A stretch of 64,000 nt of DNA, taken from IMG/VR virus record IMGVR_UViG_3300021959_000022, positions 1 through 64,000 of that record; one strand, given 5' to 3'. A program made the position numbers and the translations under genes. Positions 38,972 to 64,000 of this stretch are shown here, in pieces (the stretch's first letter is position 1; every line of letters begins with the position of its first letter). Under the pieces are notes generated by a model. It saw nothing but the letters and a program-made list of their open reading frames with translations. It was not told the origin of the DNA and ran no database searches. The DNA is from a virus.

Positions 38972-39325
38972 ATGGATAATAGACTTAGCAAGGCCTTGGA
39001 GTTTGGCAACTACATGGTCACACTCAACAACCAAAAAAGATTGCTCAAGGAAAAATTTTTGGATCAATCTGTCCATTATGTGGATGGCCACAAGTTTGAG
39101 ATTACCAAAGCACTGATCACATACTGCAAGACACTGATCGATCTTGGACACACCACCGACGTGGTTGTGGTGGATTCTTTGGATGCACCCTATCGTGTGC
39201 CAGATCTCAACCAGTTCCTTGAACAAATACTCGACGTGTACATGGGCAATCTAAATGCATACCACACTGAATACAACAAAATCAAAAACAAACGATCCAT
39301 ACAAGAAATTGTAGACAATGAATAA
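38972..39325 (+). CDS. Hypothetical protein (117 aa), first gene of the island
   Basis: A 117-residue, mostly helical, charged protein. It begins M-D-N-R-L-S-K-A-L-E-F-G-N-Y and has a central V-V-V-V-D-S-L-D strand. No known family is recognised. Its stop overlaps the ATG of the first glycosyltransferase-like gene by eight bases, so it is translationally coupled to the island. Alternatively it belongs to the tail module as a small chaperone. Confidence 0.6.
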   Translation: MDNRLSKALEFGNYMVTLNNQKRLLKEKFLDQSVHYVDGHKFEITKALITYCKTLIDLGHTTDVVVVDSLDAPYRVPDLNQFLEQILDVYMGNLNAYHTEYNKIKNKRSIQEIVDNE

Positions 39326-40178
39326 TGGTGTCCTACTATTTGCCAACAACAATGATCAAATTGACTATGTCAAACAGGCGGTATTCTTAGCCACACAGAT
39401 CAAACGCCACATGAATTGTGGTGTGGCCATAGCAACAGATTCACCGGATTACCTCAAAGACGGGTTCACAAAACACAATTCTGCAGTGGATCACATCATC
39501 CCCATTGACTGGCACGTGACCCAAACCACACAATACAAGAGATTCAGAGATGGAACCAAAGCAGAAAAGAGCCTTATGTGGAAAAACACCAATAGGTCAT
39601 CGGCATATGAACTGACCCCATTCGATCAAACCATAGTTTTGGACACTGATGTCATGATCAACAATTCGAAACTGCAGGACTGTTTCCAACAACCGCACGA
39701 TTTCCTGATAGACAGGCATCCTGTGGACATACATCCGACCAGACACGATCCTACTTTCGAAAGGATTTCGGACAAGTCCGTGCAATTCTTCTGGGCCACC
39801 GCTTTCTTTTTTAAGAAAACACATCTCACACACATGCTGTTCGAAATCATAGCACACGTCAAGGAAAATTATAATTTTTATAGGATGATGTATCAAATCC
39901 AACCCACTAAATTGAGGAATGATTTTGTGTTTTCTATAGCAATTCACATTCTAAATGGCTTCCAGACCAATCCTGATTGGCCGTACTCCATGCCGGCTCG
40001 GATGTTTATGACCACTGACAAGGACATCCTGCACAAGATCAAGGACAACAAGATGACATTTTTGTTGGACAAGGAAACCCATCCTGGGCAGTACACAGTC
40101 AATTCTGTTCAAGGAGTCAATGTGCATTGTATGAACAAGTTTTCTTTGGGCAGATGCATCGATGAGGTATGGTCTTGA
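39318..40178 (+). CDS. GT-A-fold glycosyltransferase-like protein (GT8 style)
   Basis: A 286-residue protein. An N-terminal Rossmann-like half has A-V-F-L-A-T-Q-I-K and G-V-A-I-A-T-D-S. The D-x-D motif is D109-T-D111 in V-L-D-T-D-V-M-I, the usual metal and nucleotide-sugar site. A late V-H-C-M-N-K-F segment may close the active site. It is related in layout to the next gene, with which it overlaps by 10 bases. Donor and acceptor are unknown. A role in decorating virion or host surface is possible. Confidence 0.65.
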   Translation: MNNGVLLFANNNDQIDYVKQAVFLATQIKRHMNCGVAIATDSPDYLKDGFTKHNSAVDHIIPIDWHVTQTTQYKRFRDGTKAEKSLMWKNTNRSSAYELTPFDQTIVLDTDVMINNSKLQDCFQQPHDFLIDRHPVDIHPTRHDPTFERISDKSVQFFWATAFFFKKTHLTHMLFEIIAHVKENYNFYRMMYQIQPTKLRNDFVFSIAIHILNGFQTNPDWPYSMPARMFMTTDKDILHKIKDNKMTFLLDKETHPGQYTVNSVQGVNVHCMNKFSLGRCIDEVWS

Positions 40179-41020
40179 GCAAAGGTTTTGGAATTTTCGC
40201 ACAGAATGTCTACAATGAAGGTCATGAGTGTGACTATCTGACCCAGGCTTATGCCCTTGCACTCAGCATCAAGATCAATTGCGGCAAGCAATGGCCGGTG
40301 TTTGTGATGACCAATGACCAAGTACCTGAACAATACAAGGAAGTGTTTGACGAGATAGTACCGATACCTTGGGGAGACATGGCGGAAAATTCACTGTGGA
40401 AGATTGAAAACCGATGGAAGATGTATCACAAGACACCCTATCGAGAAACCATCGTGCTGGATTCGGATTGTTTGGTCATGCGTGACATTTCACATTGGTG
40501 GGATCTGTTGGAGGGAAGGACTGTGAGTTATGGAAACAACCCCATCACATACACAGGCCAACCCATACAAGACACATACAGGAAAACTTTCATAGCAAAT
40601 GATCTTCCTGATGTGTACAACACCATATTTTACTTTAAAAAATCTCCGGAAGCCAAAGCATTTTTCACAATGGTGGAAATAATTGTAAACAATTGGAAGG
40701 AATTCTATCTGAGATATGCTCCAAAAGAATTCCAGAAATTCCCTTCCATGGATTTGACCTGTGCCATAGCGGCCAAACTCACAGGCATGCAGGATGAATT
40801 CACAGACAGAAATTTTATCCCCTTCATCCACATGAAACCCAAATGCCAAGGATGGTCCAACGCACCTTTGAATTGGACCAACGTGATCGGATCTTACATC
40901 AACAATCAGGGAGAACTAAAATTGGGCAATCACAGAATCACTGATGTTTTACACTATGTTGAATCCGAATTCTTGACTCCGAAAATCATCAACACATTGG
41001 AGAACTTGTACCATGTCTAA
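40169..41020 (+). CDS. GT-A-fold glycosyltransferase-like protein, second copy
   Basis: A 283-residue protein with the same plan as the preceding gene: Y-A-L-A-L-S-I-K, V-F-V-M-T-N-D, then V-L-D-S-D-C-L-V with D98 and D100 as the D-x-D pair. The C-terminal part has F-I-H-M-K-P-K-C. The two genes look like an old tandem duplication; similarity outside the motifs is low by eye. It overlaps its neighbours at both ends. Confidence 0.65.
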   Translation: MVLSKGFGIFAQNVYNEGHECDYLTQAYALALSIKINCGKQWPVFVMTNDQVPEQYKEVFDEIVPIPWGDMAENSLWKIENRWKMYHKTPYRETIVLDSDCLVMRDISHWWDLLEGRTVSYGNNPITYTGQPIQDTYRKTFIANDLPDVYNTIFYFKKSPEAKAFFTMVEIIVNNWKEFYLRYAPKEFQKFPSMDLTCAIAAKLTGMQDEFTDRNFIPFIHMKPKCQGWSNAPLNWTNVIGSYINNQGELKLGNHRITDVLHYVESEFLTPKIINTLENLYHV

Positions 41021-41579
41021 CATGTGGATCAGATATGATGCCGAATCTGGCACCATCCATTCCATAGGTGGTGGCCGAGACGACACGTTGGAAGGATCCT
41101 GGGCAACCATAGATCTTTTCACAGCCACAGAATTCATCGATGGAGTCAAACAGATCATGGATTACATCGCGGTGCCAGTGCCCGGTGACGAAGGCACAGT
41201 GAAAATTGTAAACACCAAAGAAGAACAGATTGATTACGACATCGCCAAATCCATTTACCAGATTGAAAAGGGGTATTATCCAGAAGGTGAAAGTTGTATA
41301 GTCACGCAAGAACCGGACAAGTGGACTGTGAGCCTATCGGAAAAACTAAGATCCATGTTGAAAAACAATGACTACTATGAGAAAAAAGTGTATAATTTTT
41401 ACATCACTGAAGAGAATGATCCTAATGTGTTGTTGGACAAGTTCCAGATTACCATTGGTGATCTAATCCAAGGGGACTGTGTGATCAAAGACATAGATAC
41501 TAATGTATGCCAGAGGCAAGATGTGAGTGTGTTCGCATTCAGACTCTTTGACACCTACAAACATGTGGTAAAAATATGA
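41013..41579 (+). CDS. Unrecognised protein (188 aa)
   Basis: A 188-residue acidic protein without membrane segments. It starts M-S-N-M-W-I-R-Y-D-A and has two cysteines in its C-terminal third (D-C-V-I and N-V-C-Q). I do not recognise a family. Start and stop overlap the flanking glycosyltransferase-like genes (8 and 4 bases), so it belongs to the same transcript and is probably produced along with them. Confidence 0.6.
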   Translation: MSNMWIRYDAESGTIHSIGGGRDDTLEGSWATIDLFTATEFIDGVKQIMDYIAVPVPGDEGTVKIVNTKEEQIDYDIAKSIYQIEKGYYPEGESCIVTQEPDKWTVSLSEKLRSMLKNNDYYEKKVYNFYITEENDPNVLLDKFQITIGDLIQGDCVIKDIDTNVCQRQDVSVFAFRLFDTYKHVVKI

Positions 41580-42499
41580 AACAAGTAAAAATTGCAGACT
41601 GCGACATAGTTTTCCTGTCATACGATGAACCAAACTGCGAACAGAATTGGGCAGACTTGGCGGCCAAAGTGCCATGGGCCAAACGAGTGCATGGCGTCAA
41701 AGGACCTGACAGAGCACACAAAGAATGTGCCATGATCGCAGAAACGGACAGATTCGTCACAGTGGATGGAGATTCCATCATTGATCCGAGATTCATTGAA
41801 CAGATCATCACTGTGGAAGATGACGTGGACGTCGAAAATTCCGTGCTGTCATGGTGTGGACAAAATTCCGTGAATGGCCTGCTGTATGGCAACGGTGGCC
41901 TCAAGGGTTGGCCCAAACATTATGTGTTGACCATGAAGAGCCATGAAGCCGCTGACACAGATCGTGCTCGAGTTGATTTTTGTTGGGAAGGAAACTACAT
42001 TCATTTGAACAAGTGTTTCTGTAAGACAGTGATCAATTCAACTCCCGAACAGGCATGGCGGGCAGGATTCAGGGAAGGCGTCAAGATGACGCTGGATCGT
42101 GGGTTAAAAGTTGATCCGCATGCCATCAATCAAAATCATTGGAAGAACATGGACAGATTGTACATATGGCAGATGGTGGGCGCTGATGTTGACAACGGAT
42201 TGTGGGCCATCCTTGGAGCAAGGCAGGGATCATATCTGACCAATCTCACAGACTTTGATTGGGTACAGATCAGGGATTCGGACTACCTAAGCACATACTT
42301 CAAGAGCGAAGTTTCCACCACCATAAATGACGCTAATATCATGGAAAAAATACATGAGTATGGTCGATCTTTGGTGGAACAACTACACTTCCCCATCGCT
42401 GTGGAACCGCTGAGTCCACAGCAGAGCATATTCCACAAGTCGGTGTACAGGAATCCGGAAAGGACCATCAAGGGATTTATGGACTACACAAATGGATGA
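41576..42499 (+). CDS. Glycosyltransferase-like protein (GT2 style)
   Basis: A 307-residue protein. The N-terminal strand D-I-V-F-L-S-Y-D-E-P and W-A-K-R-V-H-G-V-K-G are followed by the metal-binding-like V-D-G-D-S (D64 and D66) and W-C-G-Q-N-S-V-N-G-L-L-Y-G-N-G-G-L-K. The whole motif series reappears in 47969-48649, so the two are paralogues. The D-x-D and strand order fit a GT-A fold, but the family is divergent and the function is unproven. ATGA overlap with the previous gene. Confidence 0.6.
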   Translation: MKQVKIADCDIVFLSYDEPNCEQNWADLAAKVPWAKRVHGVKGPDRAHKECAMIAETDRFVTVDGDSIIDPRFIEQIITVEDDVDVENSVLSWCGQNSVNGLLYGNGGLKGWPKHYVLTMKSHEAADTDRARVDFCWEGNYIHLNKCFCKTVINSTPEQAWRAGFREGVKMTLDRGLKVDPHAINQNHWKNMDRLYIWQMVGADVDNGLWAILGARQGSYLTNLTDFDWVQIRDSDYLSTYFKSEVSTTINDANIMEKIHEYGRSLVEQLHFPIAVEPLSPQQSIFHKSVYRNPERTIKGFMDYTNG

Positions 42500-43892
42500 G
42501 TTTCAGGACGTTAAAAAATTTTCCAATGAGTTGGATGCTATCAGTCCCAGCATGTGTTTCGCCAAATGGAAGCAGGTCACACTACATCTGCAAACAGGAC
42601 ACAATCATTCATGCCATCACCCCAAGACACACAAGACACCCATCGAAGAATTAAAGCAGGATCCTTCTGCCCTACACAACACAGAGTTCAAAAAATCACA
42701 GCGAGCACTCATGCTCAAAGGACAGAGACCCGCAGAGTGTGACTACTGCTGGCGAGTGGAAGATTCGTCACCCAACAAACAGGTTTTGTCTGACAGATAC
42801 ACCAAGAGTTATGAACCATGGGCACAGGATTATCGTGATGAGATCGTAAAGACTGGCACGGGCAACATCAATCCTTCGTATCTTGAAGTTTCGTTTTCCA
42901 ATGTGTGTAATTTCAAATGTTCCTACTGTGCGCCTGAGATATCCTCAAAGTGGATGGAAGAAATCAAACAGCATGGAGCGTACCCCACTTCCACGAGATT
43001 CAATAATTTGGAAAACGTGGAAAAACAAAACAAGATGCCCATACCACACAAAGACCCAAATCCATATGTGGACGCTTTTTGGGAATGGTGGCCCGAGCTG
43101 TACAAGGATCTGAGGGTGTTTAGGATCACGGGCGGAGAGCCGTTGATGACCAAGAACACGTTCAAGGTGCTGGACTATGTGATAGAAAATCCAAATCCCA
43201 AGATATCGATCAACATCAACTCCAATCTGTGTGTGCCCAAAGACATATTAGACAAATTCATAGAAAAAGTCAAAAGGATACAAGGCGAAAACATGATCGC
43301 ACAGTTCCAATTGTACACATCTAATGAAGCCAAAGGATCGAGGGCAGAATATATAAGACACGGGTTAGATTACAACCAATGGTTGGATAATTGTAGACGT
43401 ATTTTATCTGAAATCCCCAAATCCAAACTCACAAACATGGCCACATACAATGCTCTCAGTGTGACATCATTCCAAGAATTCATGCAGGATTGGTTACAGT
43501 TGAGAAAAGAATTCATGTCTGGTCCTGAAAGACGCAATCCTGTCAGCCTTGATGTGGCATATCTGAGATGGCCATGGCATCAAAACATACACATCCTGCC
43601 CAAATCCTACAGACAAATGATTGAATCACAGGTGACTTGGATGTACCAAAACAAGGAAGTTGGCGATTGGCCTCCACTGTGTGGCAATGGTTGGTATGAT
43701 CATGAAATCAATAGAATGAAACGCATATATTTTGTGGCCAAGCAAGGTCCGGATCAATCATTTGATGTTGAACAGGCCAAGAAAGATTTTGTTAAGTTTG
43801 TGGATGAACATGATCGCAGACGTGGCACGAACTTTTTAAAAACATTTCCTGAAATGACTGCTTTCTATCATGAGGTGAAAGATGCAATTTGA
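42492..43892 (+). CDS. Radical SAM protein 1 (N-terminal twitch-like region)
   Basis: A 466-residue radical SAM enzyme. The [4Fe-4S] cluster cysteines are C139, C143 and C146 (V-C-N-F-K-C-S-Y-C). The SAM-binding I-T-G-G-E-P-L lies about 70 residues later. The N-terminal 100 residues have P-S-M-C-F-A-K-W, N-H-S-C-H-H-P and E-C-D-Y-C-W, a cysteine set like the N-terminal twitch region of twitch-type radical SAM proteins. It is closest to the product of 44504. Radical SAM enzymes start radical chemistry on peptides, cofactors or sugars; the substrate here is unknown. Confidence 0.88.
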   Translation: MDEFQDVKKFSNELDAISPSMCFAKWKQVTLHLQTGHNHSCHHPKTHKTPIEELKQDPSALHNTEFKKSQRALMLKGQRPAECDYCWRVEDSSPNKQVLSDRYTKSYEPWAQDYRDEIVKTGTGNINPSYLEVSFSNVCNFKCSYCAPEISSKWMEEIKQHGAYPTSTRFNNLENVEKQNKMPIPHKDPNPYVDAFWEWWPELYKDLRVFRITGGEPLMTKNTFKVLDYVIENPNPKISININSNLCVPKDILDKFIEKVKRIQGENMIAQFQLYTSNEAKGSRAEYIRHGLDYNQWLDNCRRILSEIPKSKLTNMATYNALSVTSFQEFMQDWLQLRKEFMSGPERRNPVSLDVAYLRWPWHQNIHILPKSYRQMIESQVTWMYQNKEVGDWPPLCGNGWYDHEINRMKRIYFVAKQGPDQSFDVEQAKKDFVKFVDEHDRRRGTNFLKTFPEMTAFYHEVKDAI

Positions 43893-44514
43893 TTATATAT
43901 TAGATAATATAGCCAAAGCAGAACTCAAACTCAAACCATGGCCATACATCTCAGTACAAAATTTCCTCAAGGAAGAACATTTGCAACTTTTTATCGATGA
44001 TTGGCACAGCATTGATTGGTTAGAGCATGAAGATAAAAAGGAAGAGTACAAGAGAAATTGGGAAGAACCAAACTGGGTGCGTGATTATTATTCTGAAGAG
44101 CACAGCAAAGAATTAAAAAACTTTTTATCAAGTTTTGAAGTGTTTGACATCATGCAACAGAAATTTGATAGATGGTTTGATTGGAAAAACATATGGGTAA
44201 AACGCATGTTCAAACGTGATGATCCTGGATGCGGCGATTACAGTCACACAGATGTTTGGATTCATTCGTACATGGTGTTACAAATCTTTTTTCCTGATCA
44301 ATCATATGATAAATTTGGCACAGTGTTGCAGGAATATGAGCATCAGCCACATGATGAAGCAGTTGAACTTCCTCTAAGGAGGAACCAAATGTCGGGTTTT
44401 GCAAACACACCAACTACTTGGCATGCGGTCAGACCGGGCAACAGGCTAAGGAAAAGTTACATCCAAAGATTTTTATACAAGGACGGACACAACCCATATT
44501 ACAATGAGCAGTGA
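43882..44514 (+). CDS. 2-oxoglutarate/Fe(II) oxygenase-like protein 1
   Basis: A 210-residue protein with the iron-binding facial triad pattern. H122 and D124 lie in Y-S-H-T-D-V-W, the distal H181 in T-T-W-H-A-V, and R/K residues in the following R-K-S-Y-I-Q-R-F strand are placed to bind 2-oxoglutarate. The size and the jelly-roll-like strand order fit prolyl-hydroxylase-type enzymes. It is sandwiched, with overlaps, between two related radical SAM genes, which suggests action on the same substrate. Confidence 0.72.
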   Translation: MQFDYILDNIAKAELKLKPWPYISVQNFLKEEHLQLFIDDWHSIDWLEHEDKKEEYKRNWEEPNWVRDYYSEEHSKELKNFLSSFEVFDIMQQKFDRWFDWKNIWVKRMFKRDDPGCGDYSHTDVWIHSYMVLQIFFPDQSYDKFGTVLQEYEHQPHDEAVELPLRRNQMSGFANTPTTWHAVRPGNRLRKSYIQRFLYKDGHNPYYNEQ

Positions 44515-45913
44515 TTTATACAATTGGCGTAAAAAAACATTAGACTCTGTGAGTCCTTCTTTCTGTGCGGCCAAATGGTTGAATGCTTCCATACATTTGG
44601 GCCATGGCTACACACATTCCTGTCATTTGCCCATACCACATCCCATAGATCGTGAAGCCATCAAAACAGATCCTTCTGCCATCCACAACACAGAACACAA
44701 GAAGAAACAGCGAGCCAAGATGCTGTCAGGCATCAGACCCGCTGAGTGTGAATACTGCTGGAAGATTGAAGACATCGGTAGAGAAAACATTTCAGACAGG
44801 GTGTACAAATCCAAGATATACAATCAAGAAGACATTGATGCCATAGCCAAACTGCCACCACAACAGAATGTGATGCCAAGGACACTGGAGATATCATTCG
44901 ATCGTGTGTGCAACTTTGCTTGTTCATACTGCAACGCCGGCTATTCCACCACCTGGGGCAAGGACATCAAGACAAATGGAGCCTATCAAAATTTGGTCAC
45001 AGATGGTGCGGGTGCTTATCACAACACGGGTGAATGGGCAGAACCATACGGACCATTAAATGAAGGCAATCCCTATGTGGAAGCATTCTTCCGTTGGTGG
45101 CCAGAACTTTCTAAACACCTACAAGAGTTACGAATAACTGGTGGCGAGCCCATGATGGGCAACGGATTATGGCGACTACTCCAATCCATGTCCAAACAAT
45201 CATTGCCATCGATGAGATTCGCGGTGAACAGCAATTTGGGTATCAAGAAAGAACTTTTGAACAAATTGATTGGATACACACATCAATTGGACGTCAAGTC
45301 TTTCGATTTGTACACTTCTTGTGAAGCATACGGCACACAGGCGGAATACATCCGCGATGGATTGAATTACAACGAATGGAGATCGAATCTTGTGGCTTTC
45401 ATGGACAATGCAAATTTTAGATCAGTGACTATGATGATGACGATAACTTCTTTGAGTCTATTTTCTATTGTTGATTTTATGGATGATATGATCGAGTTGA
45501 AAGAAAAATACGGTCACAATCGACCTTTGCTTGATCTAAACATATTAAGGTGGCCGTCATTTATGAGTCCTCTGGCATTACCTGATGACATCAAAGATTA
45601 TTGCAGAACAAAATTAAAATATTGGTATGCCACCCATAAGCATCATGAATTACTGGGTGAAGGTGAGTTGGCACAGATACAAAGATTGATTGACTACATA
45701 GAAACAGTGGATAAACCACATCGCAGAACCACAGAAGACAAGGCCAAACTACAGGCAGATTTTAAAAGTTTTTATCAACAATATGATCAGAGACGTGGCA
45801 AAGACATCAACAAGGCCTTTCCACCTGTACTAACTGACTGGCTGAACACTGTTGAAATACAGCATAAAGAATCCAAAACCATATCACAGGGTATTTCTAA
45901 CTATGAAGATTAA
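44504..45913 (+). CDS. Radical SAM protein 2 (paralogue of protein 1)
   Basis: A 469-residue radical SAM enzyme with C136, C140 and C143 (V-C-N-F-A-C-S-Y-C) and I-T-G-G-E-P-M. The N-terminal region S-P-S-F-C-A-A-K-W, H-S-C-H-L-P and E-C-E-Y-C-W aligns with protein 1, as do the G-A-Y and F-F-R/W-W-W-P-E-L segments and the C-terminal Q-R-R-G-K/T-D/N. This is a clear duplication. Eleven-base overlap with the oxygenase gene upstream. Confidence 0.88.
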   Translation: MSSDLYNWRKKTLDSVSPSFCAAKWLNASIHLGHGYTHSCHLPIPHPIDREAIKTDPSAIHNTEHKKKQRAKMLSGIRPAECEYCWKIEDIGRENISDRVYKSKIYNQEDIDAIAKLPPQQNVMPRTLEISFDRVCNFACSYCNAGYSTTWGKDIKTNGAYQNLVTDGAGAYHNTGEWAEPYGPLNEGNPYVEAFFRWWPELSKHLQELRITGGEPMMGNGLWRLLQSMSKQSLPSMRFAVNSNLGIKKELLNKLIGYTHQLDVKSFDLYTSCEAYGTQAEYIRDGLNYNEWRSNLVAFMDNANFRSVTMMMTITSLSLFSIVDFMDDMIELKEKYGHNRPLLDLNILRWPSFMSPLALPDDIKDYCRTKLKYWYATHKHHELLGEGELAQIQRLIDYIETVDKPHRRTTEDKAKLQADFKSFYQQYDQRRGKDINKAFPPVLTDWLNTVEIQHKESKTISQGISNYED

Positions 45914-47177: not shown

Positions 47178-47976
47178 AAGAGTGTTTTGTTTTGGTTGTT
47201 CGTTCACAGAGTATCAATGGCCCACGTGGGCGACCATTCTGCAAAAAGATCTCGATGTACCTGTGTACAATTGGGGGCTGTGTGGCATAGGCAACAGGGG
47301 AATACTTTCCAAAATGGTGCAGGCAGATGTCAAGCATGGTTTCAACCAAGATGATCTAATCATGGTGGTTTGGACTTCATGGACCAGAGAGGACAGATAC
47401 ATCCAGGGGCATTGGCGTAATCATGGTAATTTGCTCAACCAGGATTTCTATGACAGGAACTTCATCAGCAGATATTGGGATTGGGAAAACGATATAATCA
47501 ACAACTCAACCTGCATAATCTCTGCCAATCTTGCTTACAAACCATGGTTAAATGGATCGATTGTAAAAACTGATAAACCACAAGATCTTTACATACCAAA
47601 TCAAACAGACAAGGACAAGATAGAACTGCAAAACCAGAGGAACATGATAGATTTTTATGTGTCAAAATTACCAAAGATGCAATACTTTGACATGAACGAG
47701 AATTCGTATTATAATAACACAACAACAGATGGTCATCCGGATATTATGTTGCACAAAAAATTTGTTTTAGAAAAAATTTATCAACCATTGGGTATAGAAA
47801 TGAAGAATACCACCCATCAAGACATACAAACATTCTATGATCATGCTGTTGAAAAGTTTTCTTCCTTCAAAGATCAAAAGTATGCTTGGGAAAAAATGGT
47901 AGATGCCTGCAAGGATCTTTGGCACCACGGAGATTGGCAGAGATCGAGGATAGACGATTGGAACACAAATGTATGA
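47164..47976 (+). CDS. SGNH/GDSL hydrolase-like protein
   Basis: A 270-residue protein. The N-terminal F-G-C-S-F-T (S13) resembles GDSL block I, G-I-G-N-R-G (about 41-46) matches the oxyanion-hole block with its Asn, and T-T-D-G-H-P-D (D189 and H191) matches the catalytic D-x-x-H-type block V. SGNH hydrolases remove or transfer acyl groups on glycans or lipids. It lies between two glycosyltransferase-like genes, consistent with acetylation or deacetylation of a glycan. The motif match is by eye. Confidence 0.62.
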   Translation: MTSFKRVFCFGCSFTEYQWPTWATILQKDLDVPVYNWGLCGIGNRGILSKMVQADVKHGFNQDDLIMVVWTSWTREDRYIQGHWRNHGNLLNQDFYDRNFISRYWDWENDIINNSTCIISANLAYKPWLNGSIVKTDKPQDLYIPNQTDKDKIELQNQRNMIDFYVSKLPKMQYFDMNENSYYNNTTTDGHPDIMLHKKFVLEKIYQPLGIEMKNTTHQDIQTFYDHAVEKFSSFKDQKYAWEKMVDACKDLWHHGDWQRSRIDDWNTNV

Positions 47977-49538: not shown

Positions 49539-49554
49539 TCTCACTCTCAGACAA

Positions 49555-49746
49555 ATGCAAATGGAGTCTGCCCGGGCGTTAGTGGTCATGGAAGCAACCA
49601 ATAACAATCTTTCCAAGTTCAACCACACAGCCAGCCACGACAGCCAAAATTGGTACAGAGCCGTGATAGAATGGTATGTTGATCAATACGGAGATCTGCC
49701 CAGCAAGACAGGTCCGGCCAAAGATGTCAAATTATTGGCCGAATAA
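49555..49746 (+). CDS. Small hypothetical protein (63 aa)
   Basis: A small basic protein. ATG 49555 is used; an in-frame TTG at 49525 inside the upstream gene would add ten residues, and neither has a clear SD. The features are M-Q-M-E-S-A-R-A-L-V-V-M-E and N-W-Y-R-A-V-I-E-W-Y-V-D-Q-Y, with no cysteine. The family is unknown. It sits between the methyltransferase-like and nitroreductase-like genes. A role as a small partner or carrier is possible but unsupported. Confidence 0.5.
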   Translation: MQMESARALVVMEATNNNLSKFNHTASHDSQNWYRAVIEWYVDQYGDLPSKTGPAKDVKLLAE

Positions 49747-56131: not shown

Positions 56132-57329
56132 AGTACCATCAACAGTTTGTGCGGCACCTTGGATGCACTTCGCAGTCAGTACTCATCCTGACGGATTTAT
56201 CACAATGCCTTGTTGTAGATTTAGACTGGGCAGTGATTCGGAATATCGCAAACACAAGTTCCAACAGCCAGAACTCGCTGTAAGCCAGAGAGGTTACTTC
56301 GAAGACATAAGGCAGAGAATGTTGGCCGGGGAAAAATTAACCGGTTGCAACAAGTGTTGGCGTGAAGAAGAGCACAAAGGGTACAGTTATAGGACGCTCA
56401 TGTTCGACCGACTGGGCATAGATGAGATCGATCACCAAGCAGGATTCAATCTCAAGTATTTGGAGATTTTCTTTTCAAATTTATGCAACCTATCATGCAG
56501 GATGTGTGATATAATGCAGTCCAGCCAATGGGCAAATCTATACAATAATGCATTTATACCCGCTGGTATCACAGACAATCAAGTTGTGCCCGAAGAATAT
56601 TTGGACGAAACCGGGCGTGCCAAGACCAGTCCTGTGAGCTTTGATTTATCACTCTTAGACAAACTGGATCTCAGTGACCTCATCGAAGTCAAGATACTTG
56701 GCGGAGAACCAATGATCACTCCGGATCACTTGGTGTTCTTGGAAAGATTGATGAAGGACAGCAAACAACCCAACAAGATAAAATTGGTGTATCACACCAA
56801 TGCCACCAAACGACCACCCAAGCAAGTGGTAGATTATTGGAAACAAATGGAAAAGATAGAAATCGTTTGTAGCATCGATGGTTACGGAGAGGTCAACGAA
56901 TACCAACGGATAGGTAGCAACTTCGATACGATCCAAGACACGATCGATTGGTACAAATCACTGGACGCAAACATTGAACTGAGAATACATTCTACCATTA
57001 GCCTTTTGAACGTGTGGAAGATCGATGAATTGGTAAAATGGAGCAAGACAATCACAACTGAGAACATATCCTTCGACTTCGTACAACGACCGTCCTATTT
57101 GGATGCAACCATAATGCCTGATGAAGCCAAAGTTAAGTGTAATGAAGTGATCCAAAATTCAACCGATCTTTCACAATCACAAAAGCAGTTTATTCTTGCA
57201 TATTTGAATTCTAAAAGTTATAATATACCGTACTGGAAGGAGTTTTGGAACAGGATGACAGCGATTGACAAATACACCAAACAGTCATTGAAAAACATAG
57301 CACCACAATTAGAGGAATACAGAATATGA
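56121..57329 (+). CDS. Radical SAM protein 7 (N-terminal twitch type)
   Basis: A 402-residue enzyme from a GTG start that overlaps the previous stop by 11 bases. N-terminal V-C-A-A-P-W-M-H-F, M-P-C-C-R-F and G-C-N-K-C-W-R-E-E give the twitch set. C122, C126 and C129 (L-C-N-L-S-C-R-M-C-D) bind the cluster and I-L-G-G-E-P-M the SAM. It ends with an ATGA overlap with the amidinotransferase gene, so both products are made together. Confidence 0.88.
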   Translation: MTSKVPSTVCAAPWMHFAVSTHPDGFITMPCCRFRLGSDSEYRKHKFQQPELAVSQRGYFEDIRQRMLAGEKLTGCNKCWREEEHKGYSYRTLMFDRLGIDEIDHQAGFNLKYLEIFFSNLCNLSCRMCDIMQSSQWANLYNNAFIPAGITDNQVVPEEYLDETGRAKTSPVSFDLSLLDKLDLSDLIEVKILGGEPMITPDHLVFLERLMKDSKQPNKIKLVYHTNATKRPPKQVVDYWKQMEKIEIVCSIDGYGEVNEYQRIGSNFDTIQDTIDWYKSLDANIELRIHSTISLLNVWKIDELVKWSKTITTENISFDFVQRPSYLDATIMPDEAKVKCNEVIQNSTDLSQSQKQFILAYLNSKSYNIPYWKEFWNRMTAIDKYTKQSLKNIAPQLEEYRI

Positions 57330-58381
57330 CCATAGCGACCTACACAGAATTCCAACCGTTAAAAGAAGTATTGGTTGGATCAGCATTTGAAACATCTAAT
57401 TTTGATCATGTTGAAGATCTTGAAGCAAGAGATCTGTTCAAACGAGTCTTTGAGGAAACCAACGAAGATTTGGAAACGCTGTGTGGTATTTTAAAACAAG
57501 CAGGTGTGACTGTACACAGACCCAAACAAATATTCAATTTCAGTGAAGAACAAACAGTGATCACACCATGGATGAAATCTTGGTTTCCAAATCACCCATT
57601 GATGCCAAGGGACATAATGGGAGTGTATGGTTCCAATGTGGTTGAACACTTCACCGGTGATGCTGGAAGATTCTTTGAGAACCTGGCATATCAACCCATC
57701 AGCAGATCGTTGTATGACAGGGGTATGAGATGGCTGAGCATGCCGATGCCGTATGTGACCACAGACAAGATCCCATACAAAGACATGAACAACAGCCAAA
57801 TCTTTTATCATGCCGCAAATGTCATCAAATGTGGCAAGGATCTATTTTACAGCCTTCCCGGCGATGTTGATTTCGTTAAAGGCAAAGGCACTTCAGCAGG
57901 CATAGAATGGCTACAACGTGAGTTGGGCGATCAATTCAGATGGACAAAGATTCCAACTGGCGGCCACGCGGACGGCAAAATTGCACTGTTAAAACCCGGT
58001 GTGTTGATGACCTGGAACAGGAATTGGGTTCCAGAGAAGTTGCAGGATTGGGACATCATCGAAGTCAGATCCGAAACCGAACTGCCAAATGAAATACAGT
58101 ACATGAAAAAACAGAGATACTACAAAAACTTCATCCAAGAATGGTTCTCGCATTGGATAGGTTGTGTGGAAGAAACTGTGTTCGATGTCAATGTGTTTTC
58201 CATAGACGAATCCACAGTAATCTGCACAGGCAAGAATCAGTACGCATTCCGTAGGATGGAGAAGCATGGCATCACCCCTATATATTGGAAGTTCAGACAT
58301 CAATATTTTTGGGATGGCGGCATACACTGTGTCACACAGGATCTTGTGAGAGAAGGCAATCAAGAGGATTATTTTGCTTAA
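57326..58381 (+). CDS. Amidinotransferase-family protein, second copy
   Basis: A 351-residue amidinotransferase-family protein. The likely catalytic residues are D172 (C-G-K-D-L-F), H214 (T-G-G-H-A-D-G-K) and C335 (W-D-G-G-I-H-C-V-T-Q-D). The C-terminal W-D-G-G-I-H-C and E-T-V-F-D-V-N-V segments are shared with the 1197 product, but overall similarity is modest, so the two are old paralogues, perhaps with different acceptors. Placement among radical SAM genes suggests that arginine-derived amidino transfer is one step of the island's pathway. Confidence 0.85.
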   Translation: MTIATYTEFQPLKEVLVGSAFETSNFDHVEDLEARDLFKRVFEETNEDLETLCGILKQAGVTVHRPKQIFNFSEEQTVITPWMKSWFPNHPLMPRDIMGVYGSNVVEHFTGDAGRFFENLAYQPISRSLYDRGMRWLSMPMPYVTTDKIPYKDMNNSQIFYHAANVIKCGKDLFYSLPGDVDFVKGKGTSAGIEWLQRELGDQFRWTKIPTGGHADGKIALLKPGVLMTWNRNWVPEKLQDWDIIEVRSETELPNEIQYMKKQRYYKNFIQEWFSHWIGCVEETVFDVNVFSIDESTVICTGKNQYAFRRMEKHGITPIYWKFRHQYFWDGGIHCVTQDLVREGNQEDYFA

Positions 58382-59702
58382 GAGCCAATTAAAATATGAC
58401 ATACTTTTAGACTCGTTGGGTCATACCGACGGCACTCTACTGCAACCATCACCTCGATGCATCGCTCCATTCTTGTGCCTCACAATAGATCCCAATGGAG
58501 ATGTTTTCACGGACTCTGTGTACAGATTGGCATTAGGCAATCTGCATGAACAGTCTCTCAAGGAAATCTGGGAAGGCGACACTTGGAAACAACTGAGGCA
58601 GGATCAGATAGACAGGAAGATAAATCCTGGGTGTGTTGATTGTGCAAACAAAGACAAGATGATAGGCCACAGTCGTAGAAGATTCTATGACACTTTTTTT
58701 ATGTACAGGATGCCACGGAATCAAATGGAACCGATCACAGACGACCAAGGCTGGAATCTCACCCTAAGACCCAAAGTGACAGATTACAATAATCCCAATT
58801 TCCTTTATCTCGATATCAGCACATCAAACAAGTGTAATTTAAAATGTGTACATTGCAGAGGAGCCGTCAGCACAGGATGGATACCCGACGAAAAGAAACT
58901 TCAAAAGTCTGACATCAAGGATTTGAGGATGAACAGGTTTGGTGTGTACAGCATGGAAACTGATGTGATTGATAAGATATTCCAATTTCCAGAGTACTTT
59001 AAGAATCTAAGATATGTTGCACTGCGTGGCGGTGAACCCACATACGAAGCCAAGAACAAGATCATCCTCAAAAAATTGATCGATCTTGGTTGGAACAGCC
59101 AGATCACCATAGACATTTCGACCAACGCCACAGTGAACGACGAGGAATTCATGGACCTGTTAGGACAGTTTGAAAGTGTGATGCTCTACATCAGCATCGA
59201 GGGAGTCGGTGAAATGTATGAGTATTGTAGAGGTGGCAAGCAGTACAAGATAGACGATCTCGAGAAGATGATATTCAAATACGCAAACTTGCGAAACAAC
59301 GAAATTTGTGTTACATTTACAAGCATGGCCACAAACATATTCAACATCAGGGCAACTTGGGATTGGCTACAGAAGTACAGGGATTATTGCACCTTCTCAT
59401 TCTCCAACACAGTGAGCCAGCCGGAATATCTCAGCCTTGGAGCATTGAACAATGAAATGAGGAAAGAAGCATACGACATGATACAGGACATACACGAAGA
59501 CATGCCATGGCCGGGCGAGTTCAACAGAAGTTATCAAGCGGGGATAGACAAGTTGAAGGTCAATCTCAACAAGCCTGAGCTACCGAACTGGCAAACATAT
59601 TTTAACAATTTCAAAAGGTACATCACTGCCATAGACAAAGTGAGAAACACAGACTTTTTAGAAATAGAACCAACATACAGGAAATTTTGGGAGATAAAAT
59701 GA
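58374..59702 (+). CDS. Radical SAM protein 8 (N-terminal twitch type)
   Basis: A 442-residue enzyme. The start is TTG 58374 inside the amidinotransferase gene, since no in-frame ATG precedes the conserved R-C-I-A-P-F-L-C-L. Its twitch region has only one early cysteine motif plus G-C-V-D-C-A-N. L-G-N-L-H-E-Q-S-L-K-E-I-W is typical of twitch/SPASM proteins. Cluster: C154, C158, C161 (K-C-N-L-K-C-V-H-C-R); SAM: L-R-G-G-E-P-T. It ends with an ATGA overlap with the aminotransferase gene. Confidence 0.87.
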   Translation: MLKSQLKYDILLDSLGHTDGTLLQPSPRCIAPFLCLTIDPNGDVFTDSVYRLALGNLHEQSLKEIWEGDTWKQLRQDQIDRKINPGCVDCANKDKMIGHSRRRFYDTFFMYRMPRNQMEPITDDQGWNLTLRPKVTDYNNPNFLYLDISTSNKCNLKCVHCRGAVSTGWIPDEKKLQKSDIKDLRMNRFGVYSMETDVIDKIFQFPEYFKNLRYVALRGGEPTYEAKNKIILKKLIDLGWNSQITIDISTNATVNDEEFMDLLGQFESVMLYISIEGVGEMYEYCRGGKQYKIDDLEKMIFKYANLRNNEICVTFTSMATNIFNIRATWDWLQKYRDYCTFSFSNTVSQPEYLSLGALNNEMRKEAYDMIQDIHEDMPWPGEFNRSYQAGIDKLKVNLNKPELPNWQTYFNNFKRYITAIDKVRNTDFLEIEPTYRKFWEIK

Positions 59703-60640
59703 GCAACAAATTCTCGGGACTTTTTAAAGACTACTTGGGCACTACTGGCAACAGCACTACCATAGAACCACCCTTTAAATTCTTACAGGATCATGTCAAG
59801 GAACATGGATGGTTCAATATCGATTACGATGTACAAGACGAGTATCTGGACACTTTCACACAATGGATCAAGTCTTCCAAGTTGAACAAGGTGGAAGGCC
59901 TCGACACTTTTCCATTCAAGTATGTGAGCCTTGGTGCCACACAAACACTGGATTGGTTCCATTATGAATGTGCAAGGAACAAATGGCGACTCAGAATGCT
60001 CAGAGGCGAGTACCCGTACAACAGAGATGTACATGAATTCTATTGGGAATGGTTCATAGACGATGAAAACGAACCACTACAAAAAAATGATGCGGTGGTG
60101 ATGAGTGTGCCTTTTTCTGGTGCAGGTCACATCCATCCGAGGTATTATGAAATATTAGAAAAGTGTGATCAACTCAATATTCCTGTTATGATTGATTGTG
60201 CATGGTTTGGTACTTGTTATGGTCTTGAGTGGACTTTGGATTTCAACTGCATCAAAGTGGTTGCTTTCTCCACAACCAAGGGTTTGGGCACAGGACAATT
60301 CAGATCTGGCATCTGCTACACCAAATGGAAATACGGCCCGATGGCTGTGCAAACAGAATGGCATCATGGCATCCATTTGAACACATATGTTGGTAACATG
60401 CTGATGAAAGAATTCAGTCCTGACACTGTGCCAAACTTGTACAGAGAATCTCAGCACGAGGTGTGCAAATACTTTGGTTTAGTACCATCGCCCACAATCC
60501 ATATAGCATCTGGCAGAAAACCAGATTGGGATTTTTTCCATAGAGATAGTTCATACAACAGAATCAACATAAGGAAGCCTGTGTTTGACTATTATAAAAA
60601 TAAGTTTTATAATGTAGTTGAGGAAAGATTGAATGGCTAA
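59699..60640 (+). CDS. PLP-dependent aminotransferase-like protein (fold type I)
   Basis: A 313-residue protein from ATG 59699, which shares ATGA with the previous stop. V-S-L-G-A-T-Q-T-L-D-W-F (about 74-85) resembles the cofactor-phosphate loop. D166 (V-M-I-D-C-A-W-F) is placed to pair with the pyridine nitrogen. K194 in F-S-T-T-K-G-L-G-T-G-Q-F-R-S-G, with R202, matches the Schiff-base lysine and phosphate-binding arginine of class I/II aminotransferases. It is shorter than usual (about 400), with a reduced C-terminal domain. Confidence 0.72.
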   Translation: MSNKFSGLFKDYLGTTGNSTTIEPPFKFLQDHVKEHGWFNIDYDVQDEYLDTFTQWIKSSKLNKVEGLDTFPFKYVSLGATQTLDWFHYECARNKWRLRMLRGEYPYNRDVHEFYWEWFIDDENEPLQKNDAVVMSVPFSGAGHIHPRYYEILEKCDQLNIPVMIDCAWFGTCYGLEWTLDFNCIKVVAFSTTKGLGTGQFRSGICYTKWKYGPMAVQTEWHHGIHLNTYVGNMLMKEFSPDTVPNLYRESQHEVCKYFGLVPSPTIHIASGRKPDWDFFHRDSSYNRINIRKPVFDYYKNKFYNVVEERLNG

Positions 60641-61430
60641 CTTAAGATACATCACCTGTTGCAAGAATTACAGACAGCAAATTATCGAACGATTCAGACC
60701 TGCACAAAAGATACCAAAGTTCTTCAGCAAGAGCGAAATAGAAAAGATAAGGCTGTATCAATTTCAAAATGCACACAGAGCCAAGTTTCAAGAAACAGCA
60801 TCCAACATACAGTCTGTAGTTGATATGACAGACATGTTTAAAAAGATGCCATGGTTGCAGTATAGATTCGAAGAATTATTCGGCAGGGGAGAATTTTCTA
60901 CTGAACACAGCGGTAACTTTTACATCACCACACAGCCACACGATTGCCACGTTGATTTGCCCACTGAGGATGAACACACATATAGATGGTATGACAACAT
61001 GATTCCGTGGAAGAGTGTGATTATTCCTCTGTTCTTAAGACATGGAACTAAAGCTTGGACAGCATTTTACAAACAAAGACGCATTGGCTATTCAGTGACG
61101 TTTGACAGAGATTTTTCCAGCAGTCAAGATAATTCTGCATACAGGATAGCAAGAGTGTATGATGGACTTATTGATCAGTTCGGCAATCCCACAGATCCTG
61201 AAAAAGATTATGGACAGTGGAGCGAACAAAGATATCCACATGTGTCACAAAATAATTTGAGAGGTTTCGAAGAGGAAACAATATTAGAACACGAAACAGG
61301 AAGTTTATTTGTGTTTGATGCTTGTCAGATACATGCCAGTGTGCTTCACGATGGTAAACCTGCCGACTGGATGAAGAACGGAATCAACATACAATTTTAC
61401 AAATATCATGACAGTTCAAAAGAGTTTTGA
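60633..61430 (+). CDS. 2-oxoglutarate/Fe(II) oxygenase-like protein 3
   Basis: A 265-residue protein. H106 and D108 (D-C-H-V-D-L-P) with H234 (A-C-Q-I-H-A-S-V) form the iron-binding pattern, followed by G-I-N-I-Q-F-Y-K as the closing strand. It is longer than oxygenase 1 and looks like a phytanoyl-CoA dioxygenase-type member. The arginine usually 10 residues after the distal His is not obvious, so 2OG binding is less certain. It overlaps both neighbours. Confidence 0.6.
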   Translation: MANLRYITCCKNYRQQIIERFRPAQKIPKFFSKSEIEKIRLYQFQNAHRAKFQETASNIQSVVDMTDMFKKMPWLQYRFEELFGRGEFSTEHSGNFYITTQPHDCHVDLPTEDEHTYRWYDNMIPWKSVIIPLFLRHGTKAWTAFYKQRRIGYSVTFDRDFSSSQDNSAYRIARVYDGLIDQFGNPTDPEKDYGQWSEQRYPHVSQNNLRGFEEETILEHETGSLFVFDACQIHASVLHDGKPADWMKNGINIQFYKYHDSSKEF

Positions 61431-61881
61431 TGAGTTCAGAGATAAGTTTCTTGCATGGAGCGAATCTCACATAGAAAAGGTGAAACCCAACGGGTTTCCT
61501 GTTTGTCCATACGCAAGAAAAGCCAGACTGGGCAATGAGATACAGTTCATTGATGCACGGGAAAATATAAACTCTTGTGTGGACGAATTAGATCTCAAGA
61601 AATACATGATAGCCATATGCTGGTTGGGAGACGAGATGGCATACACCCAAAAATACATCGACAAGAAGATCAAAGAGTTTTCAGAAGATCCCAAGCACAC
61701 CAATCTATTATTCTTTATCAGCAATAAAGAATCAGGTGCTTTTGTTAAGAACTTTACCAACTGCATATTTGTGCAGATCAAAAGCGATATCATGAGCAGG
61801 AGAGCCTATCTAAAACACACTAATTACTACGATAATTGGCCTGCGGAGTATTACAAGTACATTACAGGCGAGGACAAGTAA
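61408..61881 (+). CDS. Conserved 'CPYAR' protein, second copy
   Basis: A 157-residue protein related to the product of 3041-3544. It has F-P-V-C-P-Y-A-R-K-A-R-L-G-N (about 30-43) and a C-terminal R-R-A-Y-L-K-H-T-N-Y-Y-D-N-W-P-A-E-Y. The conserved cysteine and YYDxW block suggest a shared, unknown function. It overlaps the oxygenase gene by 23 bases and is 11 bases before radical SAM protein 9. Confidence 0.7.
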   Translation: MTVQKSFDEFRDKFLAWSESHIEKVKPNGFPVCPYARKARLGNEIQFIDARENINSCVDELDLKKYMIAICWLGDEMAYTQKYIDKKIKEFSEDPKHTNLLFFISNKESGAFVKNFTNCIFVQIKSDIMSRRAYLKHTNYYDNWPAEYYKYITGEDK

Positions 61882-61892
61882 AACACCGCTGT

Positions 61893-63143
61893 ATGACGCT
61901 TAAACCACCATTAAAACAGCAGATATCCGAGGATCCTACTGCTGATATATCGCCTACTTTCTGCGTGTTACCTTTCATGCATTTGGCAACAAACGCCAGT
62001 GGCAAGTACAGAGTTTGCTGTAATTCAACACCTGGTAAAAACCATATTGTTGATGAGAACAATGAACCCATGAAATTAGATCAGCACGACATAGAAGAAG
62101 TTTGGAACCTTCCTTATTATCAAAAAATCAGACAGCAGTTTATTAATGGAGAACGTCCTGAAATTTGCCAGAGATGTTTTTCAGAAGAAGATGCGGGCGT
62201 TAAAAGTGCGAGGCAGAGTTACAACGAATCATGGTACAATGACACCATAGACATCCAAACAGAGTATGCTCATCCTGATATAAGATACATTGATCTAAGA
62301 CTGGGCAATCTGTGTAATTTAAAATGTAGGATGTGCAATCCGTATGCAAGTTCACAGTGGGTGAAAGAATGGAACGATGTCGTTAGCACAGCAGAATTGG
62401 TGCCCAATGAAAAATTACCCGAAGATGAAATCAAAAGGCTATCCAACATGGACTGGTTTGAAAACAGCAAGGTATGGGATAACATTTCTAAAATTGCTGA
62501 CTGCATAGAAGAAATATATCTGACCGGAGGAGAGCCGACACTCGCCACAAAACAATATGACCTGTTCCAATACTTGCAGGACAAGGATTTCGCCAAACAC
62601 ATACGTTTGAAATACAACACCAATCTTACAAACATTCCGGACAGGATGGTTTGGTACTGGCACTTCTTTAAAATGGTCAAGATAAATGCTTCAATAGATG
62701 CTGTTGGAGATTTGGATAGGTACGTGAGATATCCATCTTCGTGGAACAAGATTGAAGAAAACTTTAAGAAACTGAGAAGACTTAGAAACACCAGACTCCA
62801 GATTCATTCTACCGTGCAGACTTATAACATCTTAGCACTTCCTAAATTGTATGAATGGTGCGATTCCATCATGTTCGATGATGTGTACTTAAATATTTTA
62901 AATCATCCCAAGTGCTTGAACATAAAAACACTACCTTTAGAGTTGAAAAAATTAGTTGAGGAAAGACTTCAACCATACACAAACAGGCCAAAGGTCAAAC
63001 AAGTCATCCAATACATGTACTCTGAAGATTGGTACGCAACGTACTGGAAGGAGTTTGTTGATTACACAAACGCCCTTGATAAAAGCAGAGGAGAAAATAT
63101 CTTAGATTTAGTTCCTGAGTTCAAGGAGTTCTGGAATGTCTAA
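61893..63143 (+). CDS. Radical SAM protein 9 (N-terminal twitch type)
   Basis: A 416-residue enzyme from ATG 61893; a longer frame from TTG 61836 would run into the previous gene and adds no conserved residue. The twitch-like set is F-C-V-L-P-F-M-H-L, Y-R-V-C-C-N-S and I-C-Q-R-C-F-S-E-E. Cluster: C141, C145, C148 (L-C-N-L-K-C-R-M-C-N); SAM: L-T-G-G-E-P-T. The C-terminus ends L-V-P-E-F-K-E-F-W like other family members. It overlaps the last gene of the window by eight bases. Confidence 0.88.
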   Translation: MTLKPPLKQQISEDPTADISPTFCVLPFMHLATNASGKYRVCCNSTPGKNHIVDENNEPMKLDQHDIEEVWNLPYYQKIRQQFINGERPEICQRCFSEEDAGVKSARQSYNESWYNDTIDIQTEYAHPDIRYIDLRLGNLCNLKCRMCNPYASSQWVKEWNDVVSTAELVPNEKLPEDEIKRLSNMDWFENSKVWDNISKIADCIEEIYLTGGEPTLATKQYDLFQYLQDKDFAKHIRLKYNTNLTNIPDRMVWYWHFFKMVKINASIDAVGDLDRYVRYPSSWNKIEENFKKLRRLRNTRLQIHSTVQTYNILALPKLYEWCDSIMFDDVYLNILNHPKCLNIKTLPLELKKLVEERLQPYTNRPKVKQVIQYMYSEDWYATYWKEFVDYTNALDKSRGENILDLVPEFKEFWNV

Positions 63144-64000
63144 CTTGGCAACATCGGAATACGATTTCAGTGCGATTCCGTTTGATGATATCGTTAGTGT
63201 TGGACAAAGGACACTGCTGTACAGAGATATATTTTCTGTGAGTTGGTTGTTGGGGAGATTTTGTAATTACAGATGTTCGTACTGCTGGCCATACGCCAGA
63301 TCCAACACCAAGGACCATAGACCAACTGAGTTGTGTTTACAAACCATCGACGAAATCAAAAGACAGGCCAGGGAAAGATCATTCAATTCATTCCATTTTT
63401 CATTGAGTGGCGGCGAACCAACCTTCCATCCCGGATATCTGGACATAATGAAGCATCTTGCAGATGATGTTTCCAACACCAACTACACATCTGTACACAT
63501 GACATCCAATTGTTCAAGGCCGATGAAATGGTTCGAAACATATGTTGATCATGCGTCTAAGTTTCACAGGGCATCCATCACTGCCAGCCTACACGTGGAA
63601 CACGTCAACACTCCCGACCGCATGCAGGACTTCGCCGACAAGTTAATTTACTGTCAAGAACACGATGTGCAAGTCACTATCAATATGGTTATGGTTCCGG
63701 AATCATTTGATCGCTACTATGAAAATGCTTTGTTCTTCCACAACCAAGGCATAAATGTCACACTCAAGCCACAGTCGGACACCACCGCATCTAAGATTGT
63801 AGACGGCTACACGGATGAAATGAAGGAAAAATTATACAACGGCATGCCGCAGAGAGCATTCACTGAAGTTAAAAACAAATATGTCATGAGACCCAAACCC
63901 AAATTCCCTATAGAATCAAAAGAAAACATCACTCACAACACGGAAGTTCCGCAACACTTTCAAGTGGAGTTCCAAGATTCCAAGGGCAAGAAATGGTACA
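63136..64000 (+). CDS. Radical SAM protein 10 (no twitch N-terminus, 3' truncated by window edge)
   Basis: The frame starts at ATG 63136 (overlapping the previous stop) and is open to the window end, giving 288 visible residues. C43, C47 and C50 (F-C-N-Y-R-C-S-Y-C-W-P) are close to the N-terminus. S-L-S-G-G-E-P-T follows at about 93. There is no N-terminal cysteine region, so this is a different radical SAM subtype from proteins 5 to 9. The last visible part (from about 215) is Lys-rich and ends within Q-V-E-F-Q-D-S-K-G-K-K-W-Y. The island therefore continues beyond the window. Confidence 0.87.
   Translation, partial: MSNLATSEYDFSAIPFDDIVSVGQRTLLYRDIFSVSWLLGRFCNYRCSYCWPYARSNTKDHRPTELCLQTIDEIKRQARERSFNSFHFSLSGGEPTFHPGYLDIMKHLADDVSNTNYTSVHMTSNCSRPMKWFETYVDHASKFHRASITASLHVEHVNTPDRMQDFADKLIYCQEHDVQVTINMVMVPESFDRYYENALFFHNQGINVTLKPQSDTTASKIVDGYTDEMKEKLYNGMPQRAFTEVKNKYVMRPKPKFPIESKENITHNTEVPQHFQVEFQDSKGKKWY

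What the first reader, a model, noticed from the sequence alone, without database searches (positions are those of the whole stretch)
39318..64000. A phage island with ten radical SAM enzymes
Ten radical SAM proteins, each with a C-x3-C-x2-C site, lie in about 21 kb of a T4-like phage genome directly after the tail-fibre genes. They are interleaved with 2OG/Fe(II) oxygenase-like proteins, glycosyltransferase-like proteins, an amidinotransferase, a PLP aminotransferase, a nitroreductase-like and an SGNH-like protein. Phage lipopolysaccharide-type clusters are known at this genome position, but I know of none dominated by radical SAM enzymes. It looks like a complete modification or biosynthetic pathway made late in infection. 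The target (virion protein, host glycan, small peptide) is not visible.
Basis: partly seen in the sequence, partly recalled or inferred. Interest (0 to 1): 0.93.

Follow-up and report, generated by a model that had tools for sequence, protein, structure and literature searches.

The report
Phage radical-SAM and glycosyltransferase island
Beside its tail-fibre genes, a large marine T4-like phage carries one tightly packed block of 27 genes with ten radical-SAM enzymes; the block is real and belongs to a widespread family with a fixed core shared with some Bdellovibrio-like bacteria, but phage modules of this general kind have been reported since 2010 and what they make is still unknown.

Summary
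All ten proteins match Pfam Radical_SAM; seven pass NCBIfam's N-terminal-twitch model. From 39318 to 64000 they form one packed gene block behind tail-fibre genes. The record continues to 81.6 kb into phage replication genes, and the upstream junction recurs in 68 of 68 related loci, so it is no chimera.

The claim of no precedent is wrong. Campylobacter phages CP220/CPt10 (2010) carry swap modules of five radical-SAM genes plus an amidinotransferase; marine and Aeromonas phages are also reported.

Between them lies a payload of other enzymes that differs in nearly every phage. Trio and transferases also co-occur on Bdellovibrionota chromosomes (13 genomes have both; P about 5e-17, uncorrected for phylogeny). 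Of viral loci selected by the transferase alone, 75 of 79 carry radical-SAM genes nearby.

Best reading: the core makes or transfers a glycoconjugate that the variable enzymes decorate, displayed on the host surface or the fibres. The link to transferases is shown; product and target are inferred.

The parts
34354..37981 (+). two tail-fibre-like genes upstream of the island (34354-36345, 36386-37981)
   Evidence: PHROG tail-fibre matches
38029..38934 (+). small fibre-like protein (fib301 family)
   Evidence: conserved family upstream of the island; a copy lies on one Bdellovibrionota contig
38972..39325 (+). 117-aa protein (ch117), possible fibre chaperone (inferred)
   Evidence: directly precedes g01 in 68 of 68 loci with a g01 relative
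39318..41020 (+). g01 and g02, GT8-type glycosyltransferases (39318-40178; 40169-41020)
   Evidence: profile matches glycogenin, E 2e-6
41013..41579 (+). g03, unknown, conserved position
41576..42499 (+). GT3, GT-A-like transferase, paralogue of GT4
42492..43892 (+). rS1, N-twitch radical SAM
   Evidence: NF033640 334 bits
43882..44514 (+). OG1, 2OG/Fe(II) oxygenase-like (by eye)
   Evidence: sequence pattern only; no profile hit
44504..45913 (+). rS2, N-twitch radical SAM
   Evidence: NF033640 309 bits
45852..47177 (+). g05, unknown, possible glycosyltransferase (by eye)
   Evidence: no profile hit
47164..47976 (+). SGNH-hydrolase-like (by eye)
   Evidence: no profile hit
47969..48649 (+). 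GT4, GT-A fold transferase (core)
   Evidence: model pLDDT 91; PDB matches with E below 0.001 are GT-A glycosyltransferases, TM about 0.4
48633..49538 (+). MT, class I methyltransferase-like with N-terminal LRKAVxExNLHSxFR repeats (core; fold assigned by eye)
   Evidence: conserved in 93 of 103 long loci; fused to GT3-GT4 in many phages
49525..49746 (+). SM, conserved 73-aa all-helical protein, TTG start overlapping MT (core)
49755..50378 (+). NR, nitroreductase-like
   Evidence: by eye; sister-island proteins match PF00881
50387..51463 (+). rS3, radical SAM (core)
   Evidence: PF04055; orthologue in 98 of 103 long loci
51468..52469 (+). OG2, 2OG oxygenase-like (by eye)
   Evidence: no profile hit
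52469..53390 (+). rS4 plus rS4C: radical SAM core and separate SPASM subunit (52469-53149; 53139-53390)
   Evidence: the same split in independent phages and a similar one in Bdellovibrionota
53377..54732 (+). rS5, N-twitch radical SAM
54722..56131 (+). rS6, N-twitch radical SAM (core)
   Evidence: 203 viral contigs; 58-61% identical copies in Bdellovibrionota
56121..57329 (+). rS7, N-twitch radical SAM
57326..58381 (+). AmT, amidinotransferase
   Evidence: StrB1 E 4e-26, HsvA, SxtG, AGAT; C-terminal GGxHC present; phrog_25854
58374..59702 (+). rS8, N-twitch radical SAM
59687..60640 (+). AT, PLP aminotransferase-like (by eye)
   Evidence: conserved family with invariant Lys; no PDB match
60633..61430 (+). 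OG3, 2OG oxygenase-like (by eye)
   Evidence: no profile or PDB hit
61408..61881 (+). g61, small CP[YF]A protein that travels with AmT
   Evidence: such a protein within 4 genes of 15 of 17 AmT genes
61836..63143 (+). rS9, N-twitch radical SAM
63136..64000 (+). rS10, radical SAM (core), continues to about 64278 of the record
   Evidence: full length in L001:1136-2278; at least 587 viral contigs

Best explanation
The island is a phage-borne biosynthetic module that makes, transfers and decorates an unusual glycoconjugate. The fixed core (GT3/GT4 GT-A transferases with the methyltransferase-like protein, the 73-aa helical protein SM, and radical-SAM enzymes rS3, rS6, rS10) is proposed to build or transfer a conserved unit. 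The variable payload (further radical-SAM enzymes, oxygenase-, aminotransferase-, nitroreductase- and SGNH-like proteins, amidinotransferase plus g61) then modifies it differently in each phage. The product would be shown on the surface of the infected host (blocking rival phages) or on the tail fibres. Shown: co-linearity, core and payload structure, linkage of radical SAM with transferases in phages and in Bdellovibrionota. Inferred: that the transferred unit is a sugar, that the payload acts on it, and where it ends up.
For: One co-linear block in which neighbours overlap or lie at most 8 nt apart. GT4 model has a GT-A fold; g01/g02 are GT8-like. Viral loci picked by the transferase alone carry a radical-SAM gene within 5 kb in 75 of 79. 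In 241 Bdellovibrionota genomes rS10 is in 16, the transferase in 15, both in 13, often adjacent. Core genes in 84-98 of 103 long loci while payload genes recur in 22 at most. Sister islands hold cytidylyltransferases, UDP-glucose dehydrogenase, FkbM methyltransferases and a sulfotransferase, common in glycan pathways. Position after the fibre genes matches the pelagimyophage host-recognition cluster, where glycosyltransferases are common (PMC7029224).
Against: No nucleotide-sugar synthesis, flippase, polymerase or ligase gene was recognised in the window island. TM-scores to known GTs are only about 0.4. Closest solved N-twitch relatives are mainly peptide-modifying enzymes (SkfB, 6efn; 5wgg) as well as BtrN and cytosylglucuronate decarboxylase. 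The strictly conserved SM protein has no obvious role in glycan synthesis. Loci chosen by rS6 or SM contain those genes by selection, and the Bdellovibrionota P-value ignores phylogeny.
Confidence: 0.45

Rival explanations
1. Peptide or protein modification: the twitch/SPASM enzymes act on a ribosomally made substrate, either the 73-aa SM protein or a tail-fibre or other virion protein, and the GT-like proteins glycosylate that same protein.
For: Closest solved relatives of the N-twitch set include peptide maturases such as SkfB. SM starts inside the MT gene, is almost always next to MT or GT3 and usually just before rS3, and is highly conserved. The ch117-g01 order behind the fibre genes is fixed and recurs on one bacterial contig.
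Against: SM is conserved over its whole length and folds confidently (pLDDT 89), unlike a typical precursor with a variable core. The block leaves no room between genes for another precursor. SM was not found in the two Bdellovibrionota genomes tested although they hold the trio, and the fibre gene is in only one of 241.
Confidence: 0.27
2. A diffusible small molecule (for example an aminocyclitol- or guanidino-containing compound) is made during infection and acts on the host or on competitors.
For: The amidinotransferase resembles StrB1 and SxtG; BtrN-like twitch match; aminotransferase- and nitroreductase-like partners.
Against: Amidinotransferase is in only 12 of 103 long loci, so it is decoration, not core. 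No exporter or resistance gene was recognised in the island.
Confidence: 0.15
3. Hypermodification of phage DNA bases, since radical-SAM and PLP enzymes do this in some phages (own knowledge).
For: The same record has GTP cyclohydrolase and QueE-like genes downstream, suggesting DNA base modification in this phage.
Against: The island lies with fibre genes, not with those replication-side genes; the enzymes do not match known DNA hypermodification families in the searches made; bacterial chromosomes carry the same core.
Confidence: 0.05
4. Assembly chimera of phage and bacterial contigs.
For: Core genes also occur on Bdellovibrionota chromosomes.
Against: Phage genes on both sides; the same upstream neighbour in 68 of 68 loci; viral copies form one clade in all three core trees, supports 0.97-0.99.
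Confidence: 0.01

Closest known systems
Swap module of Campylobacter phages CP220 and CPt10 (Timms 2010, PMC2853527)
   Same: T4-like phage; five radical-SAM genes, an amidinotransferase and nucleotide-sugar-transferase-like genes in one module with tail/baseplate genes nearby; contents differ between close relatives
   Different: No relative of GT3/GT4, MT, SM or of the core rS3/rS6/rS10 at orthologue level; radical-SAM proteins only 24-28% similar, amidinotransferase 25%
Pelagimyophage host recognition cluster (PMC7029224)
   Same: Hypervariable island with tail fibres, glycosyltransferases and radical-SAM cassettes
   Different: Different phage lineage as far as tested: the hub protein here is nearest to jumbo phages such as PA5oct, 36%; radical SAM is mentioned there only in passing and no core is described in the passages read
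T4-like TARA_ERS488813_N000010 (PMC5332604) and Aeromonas phage 332-Vera (PMC12390700)
   Same: 12 radical-SAM genes in one T4-like genome; 8 in a structural cluster with tail fibres
   Different: No core or partner analysis in the passages read; 332-Vera belongs to Chimallinviridae; sequences not compared here
NCBIfam NF033640 N-terminal twitch radical SAM proteins
   Same: Seven of ten proteins are members by score
   Different: A family name without a tested function that I know of
Bdellovibrionota chromosomal rS10-rS6-rS3-GT clusters
   Same: Same core enzymes, mostly 42-64% identical, with GT, MT and AT relatives nearby
   Different: SM not found in the two genomes searched for it; fibre gene in only one genome

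Membership tests
Radical SAM superfamily | CxxxCxxC cluster motif and PF04055 domain | tested here: met
   ten of ten
NF033640 N-twitch radical SAM | score above 170 bits | tested here: met
   seven of ten; rS3, rS4 and rS10 are not members
CP220-type radical-SAM swap module | several radical-SAM genes with an amidinotransferase and sugar-transferase-like genes in a T4-like phage | tested here: met
CP220-type radical-SAM swap module | orthologous genes | tested here: not met
   only distant radical-SAM and amidinotransferase similarity
GT-A glycosyltransferase (GT3/GT4) | GT-A fold with Asp-rich metal site | tested here: met
   fold matches to GT2/GT27-type enzymes, TM about 0.4; invariant D57 and D59
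GT-A glycosyltransferase (GT3/GT4) | transfer of a sugar | not testable with these tools
   needs an assay
RiPP cluster | short precursor with conserved leader and variable core | tested here: not met
   no intergenic room; SM conserved throughout and folded
Lipopolysaccharide/O-antigen locus | flippase, polymerase or ligase and sugar-nucleotide synthesis | tested here: not met
   none found in the window island; some sister islands have sugar-nucleotide genes
Viperin | viperin profile over cut-off | tested here: not met
   rS10 47.6 bits against 180 (window part of rS10)

The most novel reading that the evidence does not exclude
A previously undescribed biosynthetic system, shared by large marine phages and some Bdellovibrionota, in which a fixed set of three radical-SAM enzymes and GT-A transferases, with a phage-specific 73-aa helical scaffold or adaptor, builds a conserved unit that many interchangeable radical-SAM enzymes diversify, giving each phage its own chemical signature at the cell or virion surface.
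Probability: 0.3. Interest if true: 0.88.

Novelty: new variant of a known kind. Interest (0 to 1): 0.66.

Why it matters
Radical-SAM-rich modules in phages have been noted since 2010 with no function assigned in the papers read. Finding a fixed core, its partners and a chromosomal bacterial counterpart turns a catalogue of oddities into a defined, testable pathway. If the glycoconjugate reading is right, hundreds of marine phage genomes carry a hypervariable chemical toolkit for surface disguise or exclusion, and a large source of uncharacterised radical-SAM chemistry.

Tried and rejected
Chimera: rejected (both flanks phage, upstream neighbour the same in 68 of 68). Frameshift artefact for rS4/rS4C: rejected, because the split recurs in independent phages with its own start codon. 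SM as a carrier protein like ACP: no fold support; the PDB fold search gave no match below E 3.8 and the sequence-profile hits were short or to designed repeat and antibody chains. Fibre as the obligatory target in bacteria: rejected, fibre family in 1 of 241 genomes. T4 late promoter: none found. Viperin for rS10: below cut-off. DNA search of cultured phages in near mode: no match; tblastn of rS10 and GT4 against cultured phages: no match. Profiles for AT and MT, and the OG3 sequence, against the PDB gave nothing useful.
Full report
WHAT IS THERE. The window is the first 64,000 bases of an 81,607-base virus record. Ten radical-SAM genes lie at 42492-64278. Every one matches Pfam PF04055, seven pass NCBIfam NF033640, the N-terminal-twitch subfamily, and a six-frame search of the whole record finds the same ten and no more. 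From g01 (39318) to rS10 the 27 genes run on one strand, each overlapping the next or separated by at most 8 nt, which suggests one polycistronic unit. Expression itself was not tested.

CONTEXT. Upstream are tail-fibre-like genes, a giant 4261-aa virion protein, baseplate wedge and hub genes. Downstream on the minus strand are phage genes, including an exonuclease-family gene and GTP cyclohydrolase. The hub protein is closest to jumbo phages such as Pseudomonas PA5oct (36%) and Agrobacterium Atu_ph07 (32%). Relatives of rS10 sit on contigs of up to 382 kb. In every one of 68 loci with a g01 relative the preceding gene is of the 117-aa ch117 family. A chimera is therefore very unlikely.

PARTNERS. 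g01/g02 match glycogenin-type GT8 enzymes. GT4 gives a confident model (pLDDT 91) whose best PDB matches are GT-A glycosyltransferases (WrtF, GalNAc-transferases, GtrB, ArnC, ThuS/SunS; TM about 0.4). The amidinotransferase matches StrB1, HsvA, SxtG and AGAT. The 2OG-oxygenase, aminotransferase, nitroreductase, SGNH and methyltransferase labels rest on sequence patterns; profile searches of the window proteins did not confirm them.

CORE AND PAYLOAD. Scans of IMG/VR found 203 contigs with an rS6 relative, 486 with the small protein SM and at least 587 with rS10. In 103 loci longer than 17 kb, orthologues of rS3 (98), rS6 (96), MT (93), GT4 (90), SM (84) and GT3 (56) recur; rS10 is seen in 50, an undercount because many loci end before it. 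No other radical-SAM or tailoring gene recurs in more than 22. The loci were chosen through rS6, SM or the amidinotransferase, which inflates rS6 and SM; in the SM-chosen set rS3 is in 72, MT in 61 and rS6 in 60 of 79, many truncated. The rS6- and amidinotransferase-chosen loci hold 2 to 14 radical-SAM genes. In many phages GT3, GT4 and MT are one fused protein, which ties them to one task.

THE SMALL PROTEIN. SM (49525-49746) starts with TTG inside the end of MT. It is 53-73% identical to 34 relatives, with 20 invariant residues. The model is a confident all-helical fold (pLDDT 89) with no PDB fold match, no informative Pfam family and no cultured-phage match. It is next to MT or GT3 in all 71 cases counted and is usually followed by rS3. 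Its role is unknown; adaptor or scaffold is my guess.

BACTERIAL COUNTERPART. rS6 relatives (58-59%) sit on contigs of Bdellovibrionota MAGs among chromosomal-looking genes, next to rS10 and rS3. In 241 genomes of the phylum rS10 occurs in 16, the GT3/GT4 family in 15 and both in 13 (hypergeometric P 5e-17, not corrected for relatedness). The GT, MT, AT and further radical-SAM genes often lie beside the trio. In trees of rS3, rS6 and rS10 the viral copies form one clade (support 0.97-0.99) while bacterial ones do not under midpoint rooting, compatible with one transfer into phages. SM was searched in two of these genomes and not found.

INDEPENDENT LINK. To avoid circularity the transferase alone was used as bait: 75 of 79 viral loci have a radical-SAM gene within 5 kb. 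This is the strongest evidence that radical-SAM chemistry and the transferases serve one pathway.

PRIOR ART. Timms 2010 (PMC2853527) describes the swap module in CP220/CPt10 with five radical-SAM genes and an amidinotransferase, and 11-12 radical-SAM genes per genome; the annotation of CP220 shows nucleotide-sugar-transferase-like neighbours. Similar notes are in PMC5332604, PMC7029224, PMC12390700 and PMC7150976. None of the passages read shows a function by experiment. The CP220 module shares only distant radical-SAM and amidinotransferase similarity with this island. I therefore rate this a new variant of a known kind.

MECHANISM. Best reading (0.45): the core makes or transfers a conserved glycoconjugate unit and the payload decorates it, as a variable surface signature on the infected host or on fibres. 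Rivals: peptide/protein modification (0.27), small molecule (0.15), DNA modification (0.05). Which atoms are changed, on what, and where the product goes are all unshown.

Noticed in passing
window 1185-2270 and 3041-3544 (minus): A second amidinotransferase-like gene (phrog_25854) and a second CPYA-type small protein lie near the start of the record.
   Followed up: partly
window 3992-5428: A sodium:solute symporter (PF00474, E 2e-20) in a phage genome.
   Followed up: no
L001:13451-14137, L001:11035-11931, L001:16912-18372: GTP cyclohydrolase I (Pfam), a QueE-like and a transglycosylase/DpdA-like gene (last two by eye) suggest 7-deazaguanine DNA modification.
   Followed up: no
window 52469-53390; L025, L032, L043, L197, L094: Split radical-SAM enzyme: core and SPASM domain as separate overlapping genes, conserved across phages, with a similar split in one bacterium.
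   Followed up: partly
L202 (G182:C21): A Bdellovibrionota contig carries a fibre-like gene, ch117, g01, g02, a g03-like gene, GT3 and core rS6/rS10 in phage-like order, next to what look by eye like pheST genes.
   Followed up: partly
L197 (G001, 328 kb virus record): Huge viral contig with genes that look by eye like EF-G, L11, IF-3, ClpX, DnaK and SAM decarboxylase, plus 21 N-twitch matches; whether it is truly a phage was not tested.
   Followed up: no
window 48633-48950 and fused relatives (L038, L014): MT carries a roughly 23-residue LRKAVxExNLHSxFR repeat whose copy number varies strongly between phages.
   Followed up: no
window 57326-58381 with 61408-61881: Amidinotransferase and CP[YF]A small protein travel together: 15 of 17 cases.
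   Followed up: partly
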